Shown in pieces: positions 13,023 through 50,398 of a stretch of 64,000 nucleotides of DNA. Made by a program: the position numbers and the translations under genes. Positions within the stretch are counted from its first letter, which is position 1; every line of letters begins with the position of its first letter. Below the pieces are notes generated by a model that searched no databases, was not told where the DNA came from, and saw nothing but the letters and a program-made list of their open reading frames with translations. Origin of the DNA: a virus; IMG/VR virus record IMGVR_UViG_3300031111_000001, positions 50,563 through 114,562 of that record; one strand, 5' to 3'.

Positions 13023-14027
13023 TTACTCCTGACAGGCACCCAGAATGGATGCCTCAAGGTCGGTGTCAGCCGGGGTGGACGCCACGGGAGGCGCGGCGTC
13101 AGGGGCCGGGGCGGGAACGCCATAGCCCGGAGGCAGTTCGCCCAACTGACTGGAGGCGGGAGCCGCCGGGGCGGCAGGAGTCGCATCGTAGGTCGTCGGG
13201 GCCTGGGCAGGGGCCGCAGCAGGAGCAGCGGCAGGGGCAGCAGTGCCGGGAGCGGCGTTCTGTTTGCCGCCCCGGCGGGCCTCGATGTTCCGGTTCATGA
13301 TCTCGATGGTTTCCAGAGCGGCCATGTGTTGGTCGTAGAGCTTGCGAATCGGCTCCATGTCGCCACCGGGGCCAGCCATGAACTGGCCCTTGGTCAGGAC
13401 CGGCTCAAAGTAGGTGATGCCGCCGTTCTTCTTCATGACGCTGGAAACGTCGATGGAGAGCATGTAGGGCTGCACCGGCTGGGGGCCGTTGGCGGTCTGG
13501 ATGGAGAAGAACGAGCGATCACGCAGCATATCGAAGAACGGCTTGTAGCCGCTGCGCTTGGCGTAGTGAATGCACTGGACGTGTTCGCCGTCCTCGGTGA
13601 TAGCGATGCAGAAGATGACCATCTGCGCGTTGCAGCGAGGGTTGGCGGTTTCGGCACGGTGAGGGCAGGTCTTGCCGCACTTGTAGCCGTAGTTCACGCC
13701 GAAGGCACCCTCGGAGAAGTCCTTGAACAGGACGCAGGAGCAGTTCTTCTTCTGGTCGGACGGGTGGTACAGGCTGTAGCTGTGACGCAGCGCAAGAATG
13801 ATGATGGACTTCACGGCCTTGCCTTCGTCCACGATGTTCTGCTGCTGGTCCTTCTTCATGCCCACAATCCACGTTCCGGGGCGGTGGGAGATACCCAACT
13901 CGTTCTGGTTGATTCGCAACTGCGGAATGGATGCACGCTGCTCCACTCCGGTATCGCTCTGCGCGGCCATCTTGTTCAGTTCGGCCACCATGGCAGCGTC
14001 AACGGTGGCGGGGACGTTGGTCGTCAT
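13023..14027 (-). CDS. Putative single-stranded DNA-binding protein
   Basis: 334 residues. The N-terminal two thirds are mixed alpha/beta with a Cys cluster (CSCVLF, YKCGKTCPH, RCNAQMVIFC), possibly a zinc site as in T4 gp32. The last 80 residues are Pro/Ala-rich and end acidic (TDLEASILGACQE), as SSB tails do. The position upstream of recA and the strong ribosome site (AAAGGAG) fit an abundant SSB. I do not see a clear OB-fold signature, so the call rests on context and tail. Confidence 0.5.
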   Translation of the reverse strand: MTTNVPATVDAAMVAELNKMAAQSDTGVEQRASIPQLRINQNELGISHRPGTWIVGMKKDQQQNIVDEGKAVKSIIILALRHSYSLYHPSDQKKNCSCVLFKDFSEGAFGVNYGYKCGKTCPHRAETANPRCNAQMVIFCIAITEDGEHVQCIHYAKRSGYKPFFDMLRDRSFFSIQTANGPQPVQPYMLSIDVSSVMKKNGGITYFEPVLTKGQFMAGPGGDMEPIRKLYDQHMAALETIEIMNRNIEARRGGKQNAAPGTAAPAAAPAAAPAQAPTTYDATPAAPAAPASSQLGELPPGYGVPAPAPDAAPPVASTPADTDLEASILGACQE

Positions 14028-15091: not shown

Positions 15092-18000
15092 CTATTTCTT
15101 GAGGTTGAAGATTTTTTTCAGAATCTCCAAAGTTTCCATGTATTTCTCGTTGGGGCCAGCGTTGAACTTGGCGTTCTGCGGCGAGTAGGTGAACAGCACG
15201 TAGCAATCCAACTCCTCGTTGAAGATGCACCTGTTCGCCATATCCCCAATCTTCGCGGAATCCGCGCCCAGAACCTTTTGGAACTGTGCGGAAGAACACA
15301 CGATCAGCTTGGGCTGGACGGCTTTGATTTCGGCCTTCAAGAAGACCTCTGGGCACCTCTCGCAACACTCCTTCGGGGCGTTGTTGATCAGCCCGAAGTT
15401 GCACTTGAGCGGGGAGGTGTAGTAGACCTTCGTGGTCTTGATTCCGATGTAGTCGAGGCACTCCAGCAACCACCTCGTCACCTTGGACGAGAAGTGGGCC
15501 GTCTCATGCTGGGTGGGGTTGTTGATCCACATGATGGCCGGTTTGTAGGCTGTCACGGGCATCAAGGGTGTCAGTTGGGAGTGCTGGGCAGCGCAGTTTG
15601 TGATCCCGTCCACAATCCCCTGGATCATCCCCTTGTCCACCGGGGGACGCTTTTCGTTGATCTCAAACTGCGGAAGCGTCTCAAAAAGCGAGAGCAGCTT
15701 CTTCAGGTTCAAGATGCGCCGGTCGTCGTCGATCTCGTACTCACCCAGGCTGTGGAAGGCGTCGGCCATAAAAAGGGCCTCACGGACGCGCTTGTTGCAC
15801 TGCCGCTTGGTGATGCGATCCTCAAAATCCTTCGTGCTGAGAAAAACACCACCCTTGTCACGGACTTCTATGATGTGTTCCACGGCCTTGGTGCCCACAC
15901 CCTTGATGCAAGACAAGGGGGCGATGATCTCGCCATTGTCGATAATGTAGTCATCGCCAGCGGATCGGTTGATGTCAGGGAACTGCACGGGAATCCCCAT
16001 GCGCTTGCATTCCTTAATGTAAACCGGCAAGTTGTCCCTTTTGGTCGTTTTGGACAATAGAGCGCACATGTACTCCACCGGATAGTGGAGCTTCAGATAC
16101 ATGCTCCACGCGCTCAGATGTGTGTAGCAACAGGCGTGCGACTTGTTGAAGGAATAGTTGGCAAAGGACACCATCTTACCGAAAGTATCCTCGGCAACCT
16201 CTTTGTTGATCCCGTTGGAAACGCAGCCGGTGACAAAGTGTTCCTTGTGCTTGTTGAACTCGTCCGCACCCAGCTTTTTGCCCACGATCTTGCGCATCTT
16301 GTCGGCTTCGGCGAAGGTGAATCCGCCCATATCAACGAAGATTCGCATCATCTGCTCCTGATAAATCAGGACGCCCTTGGTGGGCTTCAGGATGGCCTCG
16401 ATCTCCGCGCAGGAATATGTCTCGTAATCGTCCCCACGGGCGATCCGGGCATACCGCTCAGTCTCACCAGACTCCAAAGAGCCGGGCCGGTTCAGTGCGG
16501 TTATGTCAGTGACCTCGTTGAAGTTCTGCGCGTTGATGGCCTTGAGCCACCGCCTGGACGAATCGGACTCAAACTGGAAGATGCCGATGGAATCTCCCTC
16601 GGAGAATGCCTTCATGACCTTCTCGTCGTTCAGGGGCAGCTTGGTGAACTCGATGTCCACCCCGTGGCCGTCCTTGATCAGCTTCGCGGTATGGTTCAGC
16701 ACAGAGAGCGTACCCAGTCCCAAAAGGTCCATCTTGATCAACCCAAAGGGCTTCTCACACGTTCTCTTGTCCCAGCAGATGGCCTCCGTATCCTCCTTGT
16801 GAACGATGGCCGCACAGTCGATCAGAGGCCGCTTGGCGACGATCAGACCAGCCGCATGCACGCCCATCTGGCGAATCCTGCCATTCAGCTTCAGGGCCTG
16901 TTCCACGATGATCGGGTAGTCCTGTTTGAACTGGATCAGTTCAGGGATGTGGTCGAACGCTTCGGCGTCCGTGTAGGTGCCCACAACCTTGCCGGAATCG
17001 TCCTTGAGAGTGCCTGCTTCGATCAGCTTGGACAGCTTGTTGACCTTGTCCAGCGGAATGCCAGACAGCCTGGACACGTCTCGGAAAGCCGACTTCGCCT
17101 TCAGGTAGGAGAACGTCGAGATCGAAGCCGTCTTGTCGTGACCGTACTTGCCGCGCACGTACTCAAACACCTCGGCCCGCCGATCATCTTGGAAGTCGAT
17201 GTCGATGTCGGGGTAGTCGATGCGCTCCGGGTTCAGGAACCGCTCAAAGTACAGTTCGAATTCCAGCGGATCGACTTGCGTGATGTCGAGCAGATAGCAG
17301 ACCAGAGAGCCGCAGGACGAACCACGGGCGGGGCCAACCATGATCCCTTGTTCGCGGGACCAGCGGATCACATCCTCCACAACGAGGAAGTACGTGGTGA
17401 AGTCTTTGCCCTTGATGACCTCGATCTCGTAGAGCAGCCTCTTCTGGTACTCGGCGTGGCGTTCGGCGGGAATCACCCCGGCGATCTTGCGTCTCCACCC
17501 CTCCATCAGCTTCTGGCCGAAGATTTTCTCGTCGGCTTCCACGTAGGGACTGGGCAGTTCGATGGGGAAGTCGGGCATTTCCACGGCCCAGCACTTCTGG
17601 GCGACCTCCACGGTATTCTTCATGGCAGTCATCCAGACCTCGTCGGGCATGTAGCCCAAGGCCCGGAAGTCAGCCGCCATTTCGGCGATGGACTTCATGT
17701 AGAAGGTGGTGCCCATGCGCCACCGCTTGGGATCGTTGATGCTCCGATTGGACTGGATCGCCAGTAGAATATCGTGCGTCTGGGCGTCCTCGGCGCGGGC
17801 ATAGTGGGCGTCGTTGGTGGCGACCAGCTTGGTGCCATACTGCTGCGAAAGGGCCATGGCCCGCTCGTTGACGATCCGCTGAAGGTCACCACGGCCCCCA
17901 CGGTCATCGATGATGACGTGGGGCATGACTTCCATGTAGAGGTCTTCGCCATACGCCTGATGGAGCATGGCGAAGATGTCCATGAAGTCGTCGCGGATCA

Positions 18001-18400
18001 GCGGGCCGATGCAGCATGCCGTGGTGACCACGCAGTCCTTGAAGTGCTTGATCTGATCAATGGTCAGGCGGGGCCGGTAGTAAAACTGCCGGTTCGCGAT
18101 GGTCAGATGCTTCATGATGGACTGAACACCGCTCCAGTTCTTCGCGAGAACATTCAGGTGGATGCGCTTCTCGCCCTTCTGGCCCTCTTTCGTTTCGGCG
18201 CAATAGAACTCGCAGCCGATGATGGGCTTCATGCCACGCGCCCTGGCCTTGCTGTAGAACTCGGGCAGACCAGAAATACAGGCATGATCCGTCATGGCGA
18301 CGGTGTTCACGCCCAACTCCTGTGCCCTGTCCAGCATCTCGTCGATCTTCATCAAGCCGTCGAGGGCGCTGTATTCTGTGTGATTGTGTAAATGGATCAT
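15092..18400 (-). CDS. dnaE: DNA polymerase III alpha (DnaE) fused to a UDG-like domain
   Basis: 1102 residues. The N-terminal PHP domain begins MIHLHNHTEYS with MTDHACISG (36-44); the C-family polymerase active site YPDIDIDF (396-403) and GIFQFES follow, with SFNKSHACCY-type helix-hairpin residues later. From about 943 the usual DnaE OB/tau-binding end is replaced by about 160 residues resembling family 4 uracil-DNA glycosylases: KVTRWLLECLDYIGI, YYTSPLKCNF, CCERCP, KPKLIV-like QPKLIVCSS and FTYSPQN. The glycosylase active-site GEAPG is not present (MWINNP instead), so this domain is probably a binding module. Four of its Cys could hold an iron-sulfur cluster. Main phage replicase by context. 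Confidence 0.92.
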   Translation of the reverse strand: MIHLHNHTEYSALDGLMKIDEMLDRAQELGVNTVAMTDHACISGLPEFYSKARARGMKPIIGCEFYCAETKEGQKGEKRIHLNVLAKNWSGVQSIMKHLTIANRQFYYRPRLTIDQIKHFKDCVVTTACCIGPLIRDDFMDIFAMLHQAYGEDLYMEVMPHVIIDDRGGRGDLQRIVNERAMALSQQYGTKLVATNDAHYARAEDAQTHDILLAIQSNRSINDPKRWRMGTTFYMKSIAEMAADFRALGYMPDEVWMTAMKNTVEVAQKCWAVEMPDFPIELPSPYVEADEKIFGQKLMEGWRRKIAGVIPAERHAEYQKRLLYEIEVIKGKDFTTYFLVVEDVIRWSREQGIMVGPARGSSCGSLVCYLLDITQVDPLEFELYFERFLNPERIDYPDIDIDFQDDRRAEVFEYVRGKYGHDKTASISTFSYLKAKSAFRDVSRLSGIPLDKVNKLSKLIEAGTLKDDSGKVVGTYTDAEAFDHIPELIQFKQDYPIIVEQALKLNGRIRQMGVHAAGLIVAKRPLIDCAAIVHKEDTEAICWDKRTCEKPFGLIKMDLLGLGTLSVLNHTAKLIKDGHGVDIEFTKLPLNDEKVMKAFSEGDSIGIFQFESDSSRRWLKAINAQNFNEVTDITALNRPGSLESGETERYARIARGDDYETYSCAEIEAILKPTKGVLIYQEQMMRIFVDMGGFTFAEADKMRKIVGKKLGADEFNKHKEHFVTGCVSNGINKEVAEDTFGKMVSFANYSFNKSHACCYTHLSAWSMYLKLHYPVEYMCALLSKTTKRDNLPVYIKECKRMGIPVQFPDINRSAGDDYIIDNGEIIAPLSCIKGVGTKAVEHIIEVRDKGGVFLSTKDFEDRITKRQCNKRVREALFMADAFHSLGEYEIDDDRRILNLKKLLSLFETLPQFEINEKRPPVDKGMIQGIVDGITNCAAQHSQLTPLMPVTAYKPAIMWINNPTQHETAHFSSKVTRWLLECLDYIGIKTTKVYYTSPLKCNFGLINNAPKECCERCPEVFLKAEIKAVQPKLIVCSSAQFQKVLGADSAKIGDMANRCIFNEELDCYVLFTYSPQNAKFNAGPNEKYMETLEILKKIFNLKK

Positions 18401-18433: not shown

Positions 18434-18856
18434 CTACTCAAACAGCAAGTAGTCGTTCTGCCGAAGCAGTTCTTCAAACTTGTCGAGTAGGTCTTCGACG
18501 TGTCTTTCAGCTTGGCGAATGCCGGTTATTTGTTCAGAGGGGACGTTCTTGTTGAACAGCCGCGCAGCATGGTTTTTGAGTCCCTGTGCGGCGGCGATAA
18601 TGATTTTTTGTTCGTTCTGAGTGAACGTGCGAAGCATCCGCTCAATATCCATGATGGCGATCAGAGGCTCCTCAAAAGAGGGGCAGGCGAGGCACATGCA
18701 GACGCCTTGCGCGTCAAACACGCTTGTCTCGCCCCAGCGAAAACGACCACCACGGATGGCGTCACGTTCATCGAAATAGAACTTGATGCAACTTTCGGCA
18801 CTAGAGAAGCGGATTTCTTCGATAACGAAAGTGTTAAATGCCTGTTCTTGCGACAT
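18434..18856 (-). CDS. Protein of unknown function (140 aa)
   Basis: Mixed N-terminal half (FVIEEIRFSSAESCIKFYF) and helical C-terminal half with coiled-coil character (HVEDLLDKFEELLRQ). Located between the SF2 helicase and the polymerase in the first minus-strand unit. No family recognised. Confidence 0.6.
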   Translation of the reverse strand: MSQEQAFNTFVIEEIRFSSAESCIKFYFDERDAIRGGRFRWGETSVFDAQGVCMCLACPSFEEPLIAIMDIERMLRTFTQNEQKIIIAAAQGLKNHAARLFNKNVPSEQITGIRQAERHVEDLLDKFEELLRQNDYLLFE

Positions 18857-18857
18857 G

Positions 18858-20264
18858 CTATATGATCCTAAAACCCTCCTCTTGTTGAACGAGTCTGTAC
18901 CTACGCATAGAATGCTCTTCTAACTTGTGATGAAACCTGTCGATGAAATCGATTATGACGCAGTAGTTCTGTTCCTCCTTTGGCCGCATGGCGCGACCTG
19001 TCCGTTGGAAAAGCGCTGGTGCAGATTTGGTCCCTCCAGCCAGCACGACTGCCCCAATACAATCTGTGTCTACACCTTCGTCAAAGATGTTGGTGCAGAT
19101 GATACAGTCCCTTTTGCCACTCGCTAAAGCAGCAATTGCTTCTTCTCGCTCACCTGTGTTGTCTTCTCCATCGACATATTGAGCATTCACTCCTGCGTCT
19201 GTGAACATTTCCAGCAGTGTCCTGCCGTGTTCTTTTTCGACGACGATCACAAGAGCTTTTTTGCCCATTCCAATGAGCGTTTTTGTTTGGTCAATGATCA
19301 CGCGGTTGCGGTATGCATTCCCGATGATGCCCTGCTCGTAAATGTCTCTCCAGTTGCGCAGTCGCTTCAGGCTTTTCGGCTCGTCAATGTAGTAGAATTT
19401 GAATAGCGGACGGGCGAGATACCCACGCTCGATCAATTCTGTGGCCGTGACCTTCGCGATGATGGGGCCAGTAATGCCCTCCAGCATCAGGTTGGCTTCC
19501 TGATCATCATGCATGAACGGCGTAGCCGTGAGGCCAAAGCGGAAGTGCGCATTGTGGCATGCGTTGGCGGCACGCCAAAAGTAGGACGCACCAGCCCGGT
19601 GCGCCTCGTCGATGAAGAGGCATTGATACTTGGCAAGCTCGTCGTTGATCTGCCTTGCCTTTTTTGGGTTTTTGCCCATTCGCTGGATGGTTTGAACCAT
19701 TGCGAAAGTGATCTTGCCCGGCTCATAAACACCGTCGCCAATCAGACCAAACTGGTCGGCGAACTCCGGTAGCCGGGAAAGATACCTGCGATGCGACTGG
19801 CGCATCAGGTTGACCCTGTGCGTCAAAAAGATCGTGGGCACCCCTAGAGCCTTTGTAGCGGCTGCGGAAACCTCCGTCTTCCCCGATCCAGTAGCAAGAT
19901 GAACGATCCCTCGCTTCTGTTCCAGCATGTCTTGCAGGGTTTTCTCTTGATAATCCCGCAAGGTGGTGCCGTGCAGCGTATGGTCGCCAAGCCGTCCAAC
20001 CGGGTTATTGCGCTCGTCTGCGATCTCGTACTGGACATTCGCAGCATGGAGCGCGGCCACAACTCTGGGAGTAAAGCCAGTAAGGAAGTGGAAATTCTGG
20101 GTGTTGTAGTAGGATTGGATGCCGTCCCATTGGATACCTCGCTTCCGGGCTATGTGTTCGGCTCCCTTCACTTTGTACGACAGTGTCTCGTACAAAATCT
20201 TCTGGGCTTCCCAGTCTTCCCCCACAACCCGCGTGAAAATGTCTCCGACTACGAGTCGAATCAT
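18858..20264 (-). CDS. SF2 DNA helicase (UvsW/T5 D10-like)
   Basis: 468 residues. Motif Q region TLRDYQEKTL, Walker A ATGSGKTE, motif II FIDEAHR, motif III GLTATPF, motif IV-V (GEREEAIAALASGKRD, NIFDEGVDTD) and motif VI QRTGRAMRPKE are all present and in order. An N-terminal extension of about 100 residues may bind branched DNA. UvsW-type helicases remodel recombination intermediates and control origin use. It is the first gene left of the divergent control region. Confidence 0.9.
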   Translation of the reverse strand: MIRLVVGDIFTRVVGEDWEAQKILYETLSYKVKGAEHIARKRGIQWDGIQSYYNTQNFHFLTGFTPRVVAALHAANVQYEIADERNNPVGRLGDHTLHGTTLRDYQEKTLQDMLEQKRGIVHLATGSGKTEVSAAATKALGVPTIFLTHRVNLMRQSHRRYLSRLPEFADQFGLIGDGVYEPGKITFAMVQTIQRMGKNPKKARQINDELAKYQCLFIDEAHRAGASYFWRAANACHNAHFRFGLTATPFMHDDQEANLMLEGITGPIIAKVTATELIERGYLARPLFKFYYIDEPKSLKRLRNWRDIYEQGIIGNAYRNRVIIDQTKTLIGMGKKALVIVVEKEHGRTLLEMFTDAGVNAQYVDGEDNTGEREEAIAALASGKRDCIICTNIFDEGVDTDCIGAVVLAGGTKSAPALFQRTGRAMRPKEEQNYCVIIDFIDRFHHKLEEHSMRRYRLVQQEEGFRII

Positions 20265-24173: not shown

Positions 24174-24407
24174 ATGGCCTCTTCCAGTGGCGGCATGGGC
24201 CTTTGCAGCGTCCTGCTTGTCGTCTTCATCGTCCTCAAACTGGTCGGCGTGATCGCGTGGTCGTGGTGGCTGGTTCTGACCCCTCTGTGGGTTGGCATCG
24301 CCCTGTGGATCATCATCATCATTATCGCCCTCCTGTTCACCAACAAGATCAAGAAGCACGGCAAGAGCCTCTTCGACGAGTTCGACAAGGCGGTGAGCCG
24401 TGGCTGA
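24174..24407 (+). CDS. Small transmembrane protein (77 aa)
   Basis: ATG at 24174 with AAGGAG upstream. Two hydrophobic segments (about 12-35 and 40-62), basic C-terminus KKHGKSLFDEF. Pattern matches phage proteins often labelled transmembrane Fragile-X-F. Overlaps the RNA ligase start by 8 bases, so the two are coupled. Confidence 0.7.
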   Translation: MASSSGGMGLCSVLLVVFIVLKLVGVIAWSWWLVLTPLWVGIALWIIIIIIALLFTNKIKKHGKSLFDEFDKAVSRG

Positions 24408-25503
24408 ACTGATCGTGGAGGTCGTCGCCATCGACGACATCAAGGAGCATCCGAACGCTGACCGCCTGGAACTGGCCGAGGTCAAGGGCTGGCAATGCGT
24501 CGTCGGCAAGGGTCAGTTCAAGCCCGGCGACTACGCCGTCTACCTGCCTATCGACTCGATCCTGCCGGATGATTTGGAGCAGAGGCTGTTTCCGCCCGAC
24601 GCCAAGGTGAAGCTGAAGAAGTCCCGCATCCGCACGGCGAAAATCCGTGGCGCGATCTCACAGGGCATGCTGGTCGATCTGGAAGTGTGCGGCCTGGACC
24701 CGGCCCAGTGGAAGCCCGGCATGTCCGTCATGGAGAAGCTGGGCGTCACGAAGTACGAGCCGCCGACGAAGGACGCGCCGGGCTACGTGAAGGCCATCGA
24801 AGGCAACCGGAAGGGCTTCCGCAACCCGAACCCCTTCTTCGCCAAGTACACGGACATGCAGCACCTCCAGAACCGGCCCAGAGCCATCGCCCCGGCAGAG
24901 GACGTGATGATCACCGAGAAGATTCACGGCACGTCCTTCCGCTGCGGCTGGGTGGAGGGCTACCCGGTTACCCTCTGGCAGAAGATCAAGGACTTCTTCG
25001 GAATCCTGGGTCACCAGTTCGTGGTCGGCTCCCGCAACTGCGAGATCACGGCCCGGAGCAAGACCTTCTACGGCGACGATGTCTACTCCAAGATCGCCAA
25101 GCGGTACATGCTCAAGGAACTGCTGGGTATGGGCGTCGTGATCTACGGCGAAATCTACGGTGACGGCATCCAGAAGGGCTACTGCTACGGCATGCTGGGG
25201 GACATCGACCTCGTCGTCTACGAGGTCAAGGTCCGCGACAAGTGGATGAACCCCGACGAGGCACGCGAGTTCTGCGAACTGTACGGCCTCCCGTTCGTCC
25301 CGGTCCTGTACCGTGGCCCGCTGGGCGAAACCGACATCAAGGAGCATATGGGTGGCCCGTCCGTGCTGAATCCGGTCCAGAAGGTTCGCGAGGGCTGCGT
25401 GGTTCGCTCCATCACCAACGACAAATGCTACGCGGGGCGCACGGTCTTCAAGTGCATCAACCCCGAGTACCTGCTGTCCAAGAACAACACTGACTGGCAC
25501 TAA
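24400..25503 (+). CDS. RNA ligase, DraRnl (Rnl5)-type
   Basis: 367 residues, GTG start. N-terminal OB-like module (about 1-100: EVVAIDDIKEHPNADRLELA, YLPIDSILP), as in Deinococcus Rnl, then a nucleotidyltransferase domain with motif I ITEKIHGTSF (Lys174 nucleophile), motif III-like LGMGVVIYGEIYG, motif IV EGCVVRS and motif V TVFKCIN. Such ligases seal RNA nicks. First of a cluster with RtcB, CCA-adding enzyme and RlaP-like protein. Likely substrates are tRNAs cut by host anticodon nucleases, by inference. Confidence 0.88.
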   Translation: MAELIVEVVAIDDIKEHPNADRLELAEVKGWQCVVGKGQFKPGDYAVYLPIDSILPDDLEQRLFPPDAKVKLKKSRIRTAKIRGAISQGMLVDLEVCGLDPAQWKPGMSVMEKLGVTKYEPPTKDAPGYVKAIEGNRKGFRNPNPFFAKYTDMQHLQNRPRAIAPAEDVMITEKIHGTSFRCGWVEGYPVTLWQKIKDFFGILGHQFVVGSRNCEITARSKTFYGDDVYSKIAKRYMLKELLGMGVVIYGEIYGDGIQKGYCYGMLGDIDLVVYEVKVRDKWMNPDEAREFCELYGLPFVPVLYRGPLGETDIKEHMGGPSVLNPVQKVREGCVVRSITNDKCYAGRTVFKCINPEYLLSKNNTDWH

Positions 25504-25810: not shown

Positions 25811-25941
25811 TGGTCATCTTCCCATGGGCGCACATGCTTCTGAAACGCTGCATGTGCGCCCATACTTACCAGCGGCGGTACGACAGACAAAACCCAGAAT
25901 ACATTTACGAACAATGCACGAAATGTGGGAGAAAACGATAA
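25810..25941 (+). CDS. Small zinc-ribbon-like protein (43 aa)
   Basis: GTG at 25810 overlaps the previous stop, and its stop TAA overlaps the rtcB start (TAATG). Two Cys pairs, CMC and CTKC, and a Tyr/Arg-rich middle suggest a small zinc-binding protein. An alternative start is the ATG at 25834. The coding sequence contains a perfect 14-bp inverted repeat. Confidence 0.5.
   Translation: MVIFPWAHMLLKRCMCAHTYQRRYDRQNPEYIYEQCTKCGRKR
25824..25863 (+). repeat. Perfect 14-bp inverted repeat upstream of rtcB
   Basis: ATGGGCGCACATGC (25824-25837) is the exact reverse complement of GCATGTGCGCCCAT (25850-25863), with a 12-base loop. It would form a very stable RNA hairpin within the short ORF before rtcB. 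Possible translation control, processing site or protein-binding site. Confidence 0.6.
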
Positions 25942-27122
25942 TGGACCCGAGGCTCAAGCTCACCATCCCCGCCCATGAGATCGAGAGTGAGGCATGGGAT
26001 CAGATTAAGGCGATCCTTGCCCTGCCGTGCCTGAACACCATGGCCGTCATGCCTGATGCCCATTCCGGTTATGATTGCCCCATCGGCGGGGTGGTCCTGC
26101 TGCACGACTATGTTTCCCCCGGCTTTGTGGGATTCGATCAGGGCTGCGGCATGACCCACGTCAACACGCACCGTCAGGTCGAGGAAATCTGCCCCGAGGG
26201 CATGCGCCAGTGCATCTTTGACATGCTGGTGAGCACGATCCCCACCGGATTCGCCATGCATGGCACGAAGAACCTCTACGCCCGCTTCGGCCCGAAGCCG
26301 TTCAAAACCGCCGGGAAGGGTGGCCTGTGGGTGCAGCGCATCCATGAGAAAGAGGCCAAGCAGTTCGGCACGCTGGGCGGCGGGAACCACTTCCTTGAGG
26401 TCGGCGTCAACGACTTCGGCGAGGTCGGCGTGACCATCCACAGCGGCTCCAGAAAGCCCGGCTGGCTGGTCGGCAAGCACTACATGGACCTCGCCAAGGC
26501 CGAAGGGGAGCAGTACGGCAAGCTCCACCTGTTCCCCATCAAGTCCGAGCAGGGGCAGGCGTTCCTGCATGACATGGCGTGGTCCCTGAACTACGCCCTC
26601 GCGAACCGGAAGGTCATGATGGCGACGGCCCTGCGCGTGCTGGGTTTCAGCCCCGCCGAGGTGGCTGAGTTCATCGAGGGCGGCGACATGATCAACGAGA
26701 ACCACAACCATGCCGAGTACTACGTTTGGAAGTACCCCGAGGAACCGGGTGGGCGCATGGTGGCTCACCAGATGGTCCTGCACCGCAAGGGTGCGACTCC
26801 CGCCGAACTGAACCAGTACGGCGTGATCCCTGCCAACCAGCGGGACGGCGTCTGGATCACCCGTGGCCTGGGTAACAAGGATTTCCTTGAGTCGGCCTCG
26901 CACGGTGCTGGGCGCACCATGTCTCGCACCGCCGCGAAGAAGACCCTGGACCCGGAAGAGTTCAGGCAACAGATGCTGGGCATCGTTGCCCGCACCGACC
27001 TGGGCGTCCTTGACGAGGCCCCCGGCGCGTACAAGGACATTCGCGACGTTCTGAATGCACAGGATGGCATTCTGGTGGACGTGGTGGACCACTTCAAACC
27101 TCTGATCGTTTTGAAAGGATAG
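25941..27122 (+). CDS. rtcB: RNA-splicing ligase RtcB
   Basis: 393 residues from the ATG at 25941. Metal and guanylate-site motifs are complete: MPDAHSGYD (37-45), FDQGCGM (65-71), GTLGGGNHF, VTIHSGSR, NHNHAEY and SHGAGRTMSR. RtcB joins 2',3'-cyclic phosphate or 3'-phosphate ends to 5'-OH ends, the ends left by many tRNA-cleaving toxins. Normal length is 400-480; this is a short, complete form. It sits with an RNA ligase of the other end-type, a CCA-adding enzyme and an RlaP-like protein, making a repair set that covers both kinds of break. Confidence 0.95.
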   Translation: MDPRLKLTIPAHEIESEAWDQIKAILALPCLNTMAVMPDAHSGYDCPIGGVVLLHDYVSPGFVGFDQGCGMTHVNTHRQVEEICPEGMRQCIFDMLVSTIPTGFAMHGTKNLYARFGPKPFKTAGKGGLWVQRIHEKEAKQFGTLGGGNHFLEVGVNDFGEVGVTIHSGSRKPGWLVGKHYMDLAKAEGEQYGKLHLFPIKSEQGQAFLHDMAWSLNYALANRKVMMATALRVLGFSPAEVAEFIEGGDMINENHNHAEYYVWKYPEEPGGRMVAHQMVLHRKGATPAELNQYGVIPANQRDGVWITRGLGNKDFLESASHGAGRTMSRTAAKKTLDPEEFRQQMLGIVARTDLGVLDEAPGAYKDIRDVLNAQDGILVDVVDHFKPLIVLKG

Positions 27123-49300: not shown

Positions 49301-50398
49301 ATGAAGAGAATCTACCGCTTCGATTCCAAGGCCGAGCGCAATGAGGGCCTGTTCAAGTGGCTCTGGTATCGCACCTTCGGCGAGAAGTTCACCTTCGATC
49401 CGAACCTGACCACGGCGCAGGAGATCATCGACACGGCCAAGTCCGAATACAACATGACCATCGAGCAGATCGGCCCCGAAACCATGCTGGTCACGGGTGT
49501 CGAGGGCGGAGTCAGGACCACCGGGGGCGACGGACGGCTGGACCGGGCCGAGTATCGCCACCCGTCCTACGTCATGTGCAGTCTGACCCGTGGGTTCGGG
49601 GGTGAGAACCGGGCCTTCGGGTCCAACATCACGCACAACAGCCACGTCACCCTGCGCATCCAACGTGGTGTTCTGTACCGTAGTGATCTGCATCACGAAC
49701 GCTACGGGGCCGACCACAGCAAGCCCACCTTCGTCGAGGTGCGGTTGACCCCCAACCAGTTCGCCGAAATGATCACGAACATGAACGTGGGCGACGGCGT
49801 GCCCGGCACCCTGATGCATGAGAACGGCAAGCGCATCCGCTTCCAGCCGCCCTACGAGGAAACCATCGTCTCCGAGGGCCAGAAGGGTTTCAGAGAAATC
49901 TGCGGCGATGTCCACAAAAAGTTCGCCAAGTTGGAAGAGGAAATGGATGTGATCCTCGCCAAGAAAAACATCGGCAAGGCCGACCGGGAACGCCTTTCCA
50001 ACATCACCGACATCGCCCGCCGAATGCTCAAGGACAGCTTGCCGTTCCTCGCCTCCCAGATCGAGGAGTACGGCGAGACGGTGACCACCCAAGCCAGGAC
50101 CGCCGTGGACAACGCCATCACCACGGCCATGATCAATCTGGGTGGCGAGAAGCTGGCCGAGAAGCTGTCCCATGGCGTGTTGACCCCGAACGGTGCGGAT
50201 CGCATGCTGGCCCTGGACGTGACGCCGCAGGAAACGGCCCTGGCGTCCCCCGAGAGCGATTCTGTGGGGGAATCCGAACTGGTGGCTGATCTGGAGTCCT
50301 TGGGGGCCGTAGAGTGCCACGAATGCAAGCGGTGGGGATTCCCCGGCCACGTCTGTCATGGTTGCGGCGCGGACCTCCCCGACGAGGAAGACGCATGA
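49301..50398 (+). CDS. Protein of unknown function with C-terminal zinc ribbon (365 aa)
   Basis: ATG at 49301. A long first region, then coiled-coil-like helices (EMDVILAKKNIGKADRERL), and a C-terminal zinc ribbon CHECKRWGFPGHVCHGCG. No family recognised. Overlaps the next gene by 4 bases. Confidence 0.6.
   Translation: MKRIYRFDSKAERNEGLFKWLWYRTFGEKFTFDPNLTTAQEIIDTAKSEYNMTIEQIGPETMLVTGVEGGVRTTGGDGRLDRAEYRHPSYVMCSLTRGFGGENRAFGSNITHNSHVTLRIQRGVLYRSDLHHERYGADHSKPTFVEVRLTPNQFAEMITNMNVGDGVPGTLMHENGKRIRFQPPYEETIVSEGQKGFREICGDVHKKFAKLEEEMDVILAKKNIGKADRERLSNITDIARRMLKDSLPFLASQIEEYGETVTTQARTAVDNAITTAMINLGGEKLAEKLSHGVLTPNGADRMLALDVTPQETALASPESDSVGESELVADLESLGAVECHECKRWGFPGHVCHGCGADLPDEEDA

What the first reader, a model, noticed from the sequence alone, without database searches (positions are those of the whole stretch)
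15092..18400. DnaE polymerase fused to a degenerate family 4 UDG-like domain
The last 160 residues resemble uracil-DNA glycosylase family 4 (YYTSPLKC, CCERC, QPKLIVCSS) in place of the normal DnaE tail, while the catalytic GEAPG is missing. Family 4 UDG was first linked to a phage SPO1 polymerase-related protein, so polymerase-UDG links exist, but a DnaE fusion is unusual. It may read template uracil, bind modified bases or hold an iron-sulfur cluster.
Basis: partly seen in the sequence, partly recalled or inferred. Interest (0 to 1): 0.7.

Follow-up and report, generated by a model that had tools for sequence, protein, structure and literature searches.

The report
Phage polymerase carrying retired repair domain
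This phage's DNA-copying enzyme ends in a domain built like a uracil-removing repair enzyme whose cutting residues are gone; such fusions were known in bacteria, but they turn out to be common in phages, with intact-looking and 'retired' forms that seem to share one origin.

Summary
The gene at 15092-18400 (-) is a DnaE (Pol III alpha) of a 114.6-kb phage record. Residues about 922-1101 form a uracil-DNA glycosylase (UDG) superfamily domain: Pfam UDG E 7.9e-8, model pLDDT 91, family 4 UDG at Z 21. It stands where OB and C-terminal domains normally sit. The architecture is not new: Timinskas et al. 2013 reported DnaE with UDG replacing OB and CTD in Yersinia pestis and Salmonella strains.

New here: the fusion is widespread in phages and phage-plasmids. 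Of 101 sampled fusion ORFs, 93 lack all three family 4 residues tested (E, N, H). Eight others, in a separate clade, keep most or all of them, with the canonical cysteines. UDG domains of both kinds lie on one side of a 99/93 branch against other UDGs, so one origin is likely. In testable relatives the altered domain is under the same purifying selection as the polymerase (omega 0.135 against 0.131). The window's own class has four cysteines in a changed arrangement.

Best reading: a former repair domain kept as a non-excising, DNA- or base-reading module at the old OB position. That function is inferred; an altered glycosylase or a plain DNA grip is not excluded.

The parts
15092..18400 (-). 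DnaE (DNA polymerase III alpha, family C) with C-terminal UDG-like domain, 1102 aa
   Evidence: AF2 full length pLDDT 89.3, pTM 0.81; residues 1-895 match 5lew at Z 44.6
17918..18394 (-). PHP domain, residues 3-161 (Pfam range); HLHNH, DHA, GCEFY and, further on, NDAHY motifs present (candidate metal ligands, naming by recall)
16211..17503 (-). polymerase core and fingers, residues 300-730; PDIDIDF (from 397) and KMDLLGL (from 556) present (acidic residues catalytic by recall)
15740..15997 (-). helix-hairpin-helix domain, residues 802-887
15683..15706 (-). LKKLLSLF (residues 899-906), about where bacterial DnaE carries the clamp-binding motif; lacks the Q
15098..15637 (-). UDG-superfamily domain, residues about 922-1101
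15593..15595 (-). Cys936, N-terminal cysteine shared by the window, L002, L005 and L093
15512..15526 (-). INNPT (959-963), in place of the water-activating motif GEAPG
15401..15424 (-). YYTSPLKC (993-1000): T and K-C kept, uracil-binding N replaced by S
15353..15373 (-). KECCERC (1010-1016): C1012/C1016 pair; extra cysteine one helical turn before the canonical one
15173..15187 (-). YSPQN (1072-1076), in place of the HPS motif; catalytic H replaced by S

Best explanation
Shown: a phage DnaE in which a UDG-superfamily domain stands in place of the OB and C-terminal domains; the domain is a relative of intact-looking UDG domains on other phage DnaE proteins and has lost the three family 4 residues tested. 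Inferred: the fusion arose once in phages as a polymerase with its own repair glycosylase. In the window's clade excision was lost, and the domain was kept as a non-excising module that holds or reads single-stranded template next to the polymerase, at the position where the OB domain sits. The remodelled pocket is conserved, so it probably still recognises a base or nucleotide rather than acting as inert scaffold; a pause or steering signal at uracil or another unusual base is the most likely form. In the window's class the domain probably still holds an Fe-S cluster through a rearranged cysteine set (936, 1000, 1012, 1016).
For: Fold. Shared origin: 29 DnaE-borne UDG domains on one side of a branch against 23 other UDGs, 99/92.8; one clade of UDG-tailed DnaE cores not rejected, p-AU 0.431. 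All-or-none loss of the catalytic set: 93 of 101 lack E, N and H; 6 of 101 keep all three. Maintained: median omega 0.135 for the domain and 0.131 for the core, 67 pairs. Pocket columns are the better conserved ones in altered classes: entropy 0.83 against 1.50 (window class, p 0.0002) and 0.69 against 1.54 (Rhizobium class, p 0.0001). Position: the bacterial OB/CTD profile hits 0 of 102 UDG-tailed ORFs but 39 of 129 other phage DnaE.
Against: No assay. Pocket conservation may be folding constraint, and it is unclear in the CxxC class (p 0.06). The domain on the Rhizobium side (Rhizobium, CxxC and SSU5 classes together) is net acidic (mean -2.7, 86 ORFs), which speaks against simple DNA gripping there, though the window class is +3.6. 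MUG/TDG-type enzymes work with other residues at these places (recalled), so loss of E, N and H does not prove inactivity. The omega test covers only the Rhizobium/CxxC side; the window class is too diverged. Only 4 of 7 window-class sequences carry all four cysteines. That the OB domain contacts template is recalled.
Confidence: 0.45

Rival explanations
1. A general DNA grip that gives the polymerase processivity without a clamp, with no base recognition, as the poxvirus UDG D4 does with A20 (D4 recalled, no call).
For: No beta clamp gene in the record or in 34 fusion records; the strict clamp-binding motif, present in 62 of 79 bacterial DnaE, is in 1 of 101 UDG-tailed ORFs; window-class and intact domains are net positive.
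Against: A clamp gene is also absent from 11 of 12 phage records with untailed DnaE, so absence is not specific. A relaxed motif Q..[LM][FLM] is present in 35 of 70 Rhizobium-class, 12 of 13 CxxC and 3 of 3 SSU5-type ORFs, so host clamp use is possible there. Rhizobium-side domains are acidic. Pocket columns are the conserved ones.
Confidence: 0.25
2. An active glycosylase with altered chemistry or specificity, in the manner of MUG/TDG (motifs recalled: GINPG, NPSG), excising uracil or another base during replication.
For: The pocket is conserved in altered form: INNP in the window class, (N/S)PG in the Rhizobium class. MUG and TDG are in the structural list (Z about 12). A related clade looks active.
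Against: E, N and H are all replaced in 93 of 101. Family 4 and UdgX match far better (Z 18-21) than MUG/TDG. Excising a base in single-stranded template ahead of a polymerase would be harmful (reasoning).
Confidence: 0.15
3. An Fe-S redox or damage sensor: the cluster, not the pocket, is the kept function.
For: Four cysteines in window, L002, L005 and L093; CxxC plus the last canonical cysteine in all 13 CxxC-class sequences.
Against: The Rhizobium class (70) and SSU5 type (3) lack the canonical cysteines and keep the domain, so a cluster is not the shared function.
Confidence: 0.08
4. A decaying remnant without function.
For: Loss of catalytic residues; the tail was dropped once within the intact clade (L103).
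Against: Omega in relatives equals that of the polymerase core; all 29 rows of the window-plus-Rhizobium-side group in the tree keep the domain.
Confidence: 0.03

Closest known systems
DnaEX with UDG domain in Yersinia pestis and Salmonella enterica strains (Timinskas et al. 2013, PMC3919608, passages read)
   Same: DnaE with OB and CTD replaced by a PF03167 domain
   Different: The passages read name it a UDG domain and do not remark on catalytic state or on phages as its carriers. The likely equivalent here, SSU5 type, lacks E, N and H; that the two are the same lineage is inferred. The window's DnaE is only about 30% identical to the SSU5-type proteins and has its own cysteine set
PolA with N-terminal UDG domain: Pseudomonas phage PaBG group (PMC7412058, passages), BSP7, Lebethron, and phiLo PolA 9qhs (title only)
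   Same: UDG-superfamily domain on a phage polymerase
   Different: Family A polymerase, other terminus; the one PolA-borne UDG kept in the final tree (L083) falls with stand-alone UDGs
Family 4 UDG (1ui0, 4zbx) and UdgX (6ajo)
   Same: Fold, Z 18-21; T and K-C of the pocket strand
   Different: E, N and H replaced; cysteine pattern changed; part of a polymerase
Archaeal family B polymerases with a uracil read-ahead pocket (PMC3950489, passages)
   Same: Proposed working principle only
   Different: Another polymerase family and another pocket; no common origin was looked for

Membership tests
DnaE / Pol III alpha (family C) | PHP, Pol3 core, fingers and HhH domains in order | tested here: met
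   Z 44.6 to 5lew and 41.3 to 2hpi
DnaE / Pol III alpha (family C) | catalytic acidic motifs | tested here: met
   PDIDIDF from 397, KMDLLGL from 556; roles recalled
DnaE / Pol III alpha (family C) | C-terminal OB domain and CTD (typical, not universal) | tested here: not met
   none listed; none by profile; lacking in the known UDG variant too
UDG superfamily | alpha/beta UDG fold | tested here: met
   Pfam above cut-off; Foldseek and VIA
Family 4 UDG | motif GEAPG with its E | tested here: not met
   INNPT; alignment at this motif is uncertain by one column in the window
Family 4 UDG | uracil-binding N of TN and H of HPS | tested here: not met
   S and S; roles recalled
Family 4 UDG | four-cysteine CxxC..C..C pattern | tested here: not met
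   one CxxC position is not a cysteine; four cysteines are present in another arrangement
Family 4 UDG | [4Fe-4S] cluster bound | not testable with these tools
   needs purified protein
Family 4 UDG | uracil excision | not testable with these tools
   needs an assay
DnaE-UDG variant of Timinskas et al. 2013 | OB and CTD replaced by PF03167 on a DnaE | tested here: met

The most novel reading that the evidence does not exclude
Phages fused a repair glycosylase to their replicase once and then, in one large clade, turned it into a non-excising base reader: a family C counterpart of archaeal uracil read-ahead, with the window's class re-wiring its Fe-S ligands along the way.
Probability: 0.22. 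Interest if true: 0.75.

Novelty: new variant of a known kind. Interest (0 to 1): 0.45.

Why it matters
It turns a side remark about two bacterial species into a large phage family with intact-looking and altered forms of the same fusion, so the effect of losing excision on a replicase can be tested side by side. The SSU5-type form is in hundreds of plasmid records of enterobacteria, where it is annotated simply as dnaE or hypothetical protein in the rows seen. If the tail reads template bases, it would be a read-ahead device in a polymerase family where, to my knowledge, none is described (recalled, not searched for).

Tried and rejected
Modified-DNA link: rejected for this class. Thymidylate-synthase family in 9 of 29 altered-class records, 1 of 5 intact (a broken frame) and 2 of 12 untailed, not in the window's record; QueC over its cut-off in 0 of 29 altered-class records (one weak match below it) and not in the window's record, in 1 of 5 intact records and in 2 PolA-UDG records. 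dUTPase: in 25 of 29 altered-class records plus the window's record, 0 of 5 intact (28-81 kb pieces), 3 of 12 untailed; suggestive, but the records are close kin, so not used as proof.

Tail alone as IMG/VR query found nothing; alignment A2 had no usable pattern. The one-clade test on 74 DnaE rows did not finish and was replaced by one on 46 rows. Looking for OB in L094 and L104, which have about 200 residues between HhH and UDG, gave no significant hit. Bacillus BSP7, Lebethron, Microcystis, Brevundimonas, the two Manatee Spring phages, two human faecal contigs and the 595-kb phage carry UDG domains that are not on a DnaE ORF in the stretch fetched.

Full report
What is there. The window is bases 50563-114562 of a 114,562-bp virus record. 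The gene at 15092-18400 (-) codes for a 1102-residue DnaE. Pfam finds PHP, the Pol3 core, fingers and HHH_6 in order, then UDG PF03167 at residues 966-1081, E 7.9e-8, above the curated cut-off. Neighbours are replication and recombination genes: a helicase (18858-20264), a RecA/UvsX protein, SbcC- and SbcD-like proteins, an ATP-dependent ligase and a RuvC-like resolvase, all on the same strand, and a DnaB-like helicase on the other strand.

Fold. AlphaFold2 on the last 215 residues with 74 rows gave pLDDT 91.0 and pTM 0.88. Family 4 UDG 4zbx matches at Z 21.2, rmsd 2.6 over 178 residues; 1ui0 at 20.5, UdgX about 18, MUG/TDG about 12; Foldseek agrees, best E 7.4e-10. The full-length model (45 rows; pLDDT 89.3, pTM 0.81) splits cleanly: residues 1-895 match 5lew at Z 44.6, residues 923-1101 match 4zbx at Z 20.7. 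Caveat: the alignments included intact UDG relatives, so the models are not independent of them; the Pfam match of the single sequence is. A plain phmmer of the tail against the PDB was not significant (E 0.42); a profile of the 74 rows was (4zbx, E 3.7e-34).

Relatives. Searches of IMG/VR and of species genomes with the full protein and with two alignments, plus named phages, gave 327 sources, the window included. An iterated profile found UDG-like domains in 109 of them, 102 on a DnaE ORF, 101 when the second copy of the window (L001) is dropped. The queries were themselves fusions, so these are not prevalence figures. Named phages with the fusion include Rhizobium phages RHph_N1_15 and V1VFA-S, Stenotrophomonas BUCTxx99, Escherichia Cyrano, Klebsiella pJN2-26 and Salmonella SSU5 and Pseudomonas nickie (not among the 101). 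Over whole records the Pfam match is above cut-off for L002-L005, the two Rhizobium phages and BUCTxx99, and below it for SSU5, pJN2-26 and Cyrano. The SSU5-type tail matches 913 of 72,556 plasmid records; the Acinetobacter examples seen are about 30% identical.

Classes. In an alignment of all tails three kinds appear. Intact: L094, L095, L096, L097 (cut by the contig end), L099, L104, L109 and L153, with GEAPG-like, TN and HP motifs and CxxC..C..C; Pfam UDG E 1e-17 to 1e-25 on DnaE for the seven scanned, L097 left out. Rhizobium side: 70, plus 13 that keep CxxC, plus 3 of SSU5 type; all 86 have D for E, none has N or H. Window class: window, L002, L003, L004, L005, L092 and L093, with N, G or T for E, and S for N and for H in all 7. 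In total 93 of 101 have none of E, N, H; 6 have all three; L109 has Q for E and L097 is incomplete. Residue roles are recalled from work on families 1 and 4. In the window class motif 1 can be slid by one residue, which would make INNP look like the GINPG of MUG (recalled); I do not treat inactivity as proven.

Cysteines. Family 4 structures have an Fe-S cluster next to the active site (PMC3950489, passages). Four of seven window-class sequences (window, L002, L005, L093) have an N-terminal C, the C of K-C, and C-x3-C ending at the canonical fourth place; L003 and L004 have two of these, L092 none. One CxxC cysteine seems to have been exchanged for one a helical turn before the last ligand. 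Cluster binding is a prediction.

Origin. A careful tree of 52 UDG domains puts 29 DnaE-borne domains (22 altered, 7 intact) on one side of a branch against 23 others, support 99/92.8; five long-branched rows (L084, L092, L087, L341, L347) had been dropped, and the bootstrap had not settled. With all 57 rows the one-clade tree was 10.4 log units better than the quick tree, p-AU 0.736. On DnaE cores, window class, Rhizobium and CxxC classes form one all-fusion group at SH-aLRT 97 in 74 rows and 92 in 46 rows; the intact group with L103 is another at 98 in both. Their union is neither shown nor rejected (p-AU 0.431). L103, inside the intact group, ends shortly after the HhH region: one loss of the tail.

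Maintenance. For 68 pairs of relatives 80-98.5% identical, median omega is 0.131 for the core and 0.135 for the UDG-like domain (67 pairs with finite values each). The pairs shown are on the Rhizobium/CxxC side; they overlap, so this is a description, not a test. Pocket-motif columns are more conserved than the rest in the window class (p 0.0002), intact (p 0.0001) and Rhizobium class (p 0.0001), less clearly in the CxxC class (p 0.06); the SSU5 type gave a single row after thinning and says nothing.

Replication setting. No beta-clamp gene was found in the window's record, in 29 altered or 5 intact fusion records, and in only 1 of 12 untailed ones. The strict clamp-binding motif is found in 62 of 79 bacterial DnaE, 19 of 138 untailed phage DnaE and 1 of 101 fusions; a relaxed form is frequent on the Rhizobium side and in untailed phage DnaE (84 of 138), rare in window class (1 of 7) and intact ORFs (1 of 8). 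The window has LKKLLSLF there without Q. The window's phage has a dUTPase just outside the window edge (record 49730-50212), as do 25 of 29 altered-class records, 0 of 5 intact fragments and 3 of 12 untailed ones. If real, this suggests that lineages which keep uracil out of the nucleotide pool could afford to lose excision; kinship among the records prevents more.

What it most likely does. The tail stands where the OB domain stands in bacterial DnaE, which by recall contacts single-stranded template. An altered but conserved pocket on a maintained domain fits a module that binds template and perhaps recognises a base without excising it. A plain grip for processivity, as in poxvirus D4 (recalled), is the main rival; an altered glycosylase is possible.

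What is known. Timinskas et al. [quoted passage not shown] So the architecture is published. PolA-UDG fusions are published for PaBG-like phages (PMC7412058, passages). In the held library, the searches listed no paper whose title or abstract start is on phage DnaE-UDG fusions or their catalytic state; papers on viral replicases that I tried to read are not held, so earlier mention there is possible.

Noticed in passing
L104:2370-7772, L092:3944-8161, L093:4001-8202: Intein-like insertions in phage DnaE genes with UDG tails; Pfam Intein_splicing confirmed for L104 only, the others judged by eye.
   Followed up: partly
L369:1299-5151 (Acinetobacter baumannii plasmid p2LMG994): dnaE is split: polymerase ORF, a NUMOD4 ORF, then an ORF annotated 'uracil-DNA glycosylase family protein', as if a homing element interrupts a DnaE-UDG gene.
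   Followed up: no
L084, L366, L362: Phages with PolA-UDG fusions carry DNA-modification genes nearby: QueD/QueE/GTP cyclohydrolase (BSP7), 7-deazaguanine genes (StAshley), a 'pyrimidine hmase' gene (MW202455). A possible link of PolA-UDG with modified DNA.
   Followed up: partly
PDB 9qhs_A: phiLo family A polymerase 'with modified template' matches the tail at Z 13.6 over its residues 34-205: a UDG-like domain on a polymerase solved with template. No paper on it was found.
   Followed up: partly
L103:177-2852: A DnaE inside the intact-UDG clade that has lost the UDG tail.
   Followed up: yes
window 24400-25503 and 25824-27122: RNA ligase and RtcB-like ligase genes close together.
   Followed up: no
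window 18434-18856 and 13023-14027: ORFs near the polymerase without PHROG family and without convincing Pfam match.
   Followed up: no
BFVD A0A2U8UWY8: Weak fold match (E 0.038, prob 0.97) of the tail to the DNA polymerase of Escherichia phage Gostya9, by recall a T5-like phage; T5 polymerase is known by recall for processivity without a clamp.
   Followed up: no
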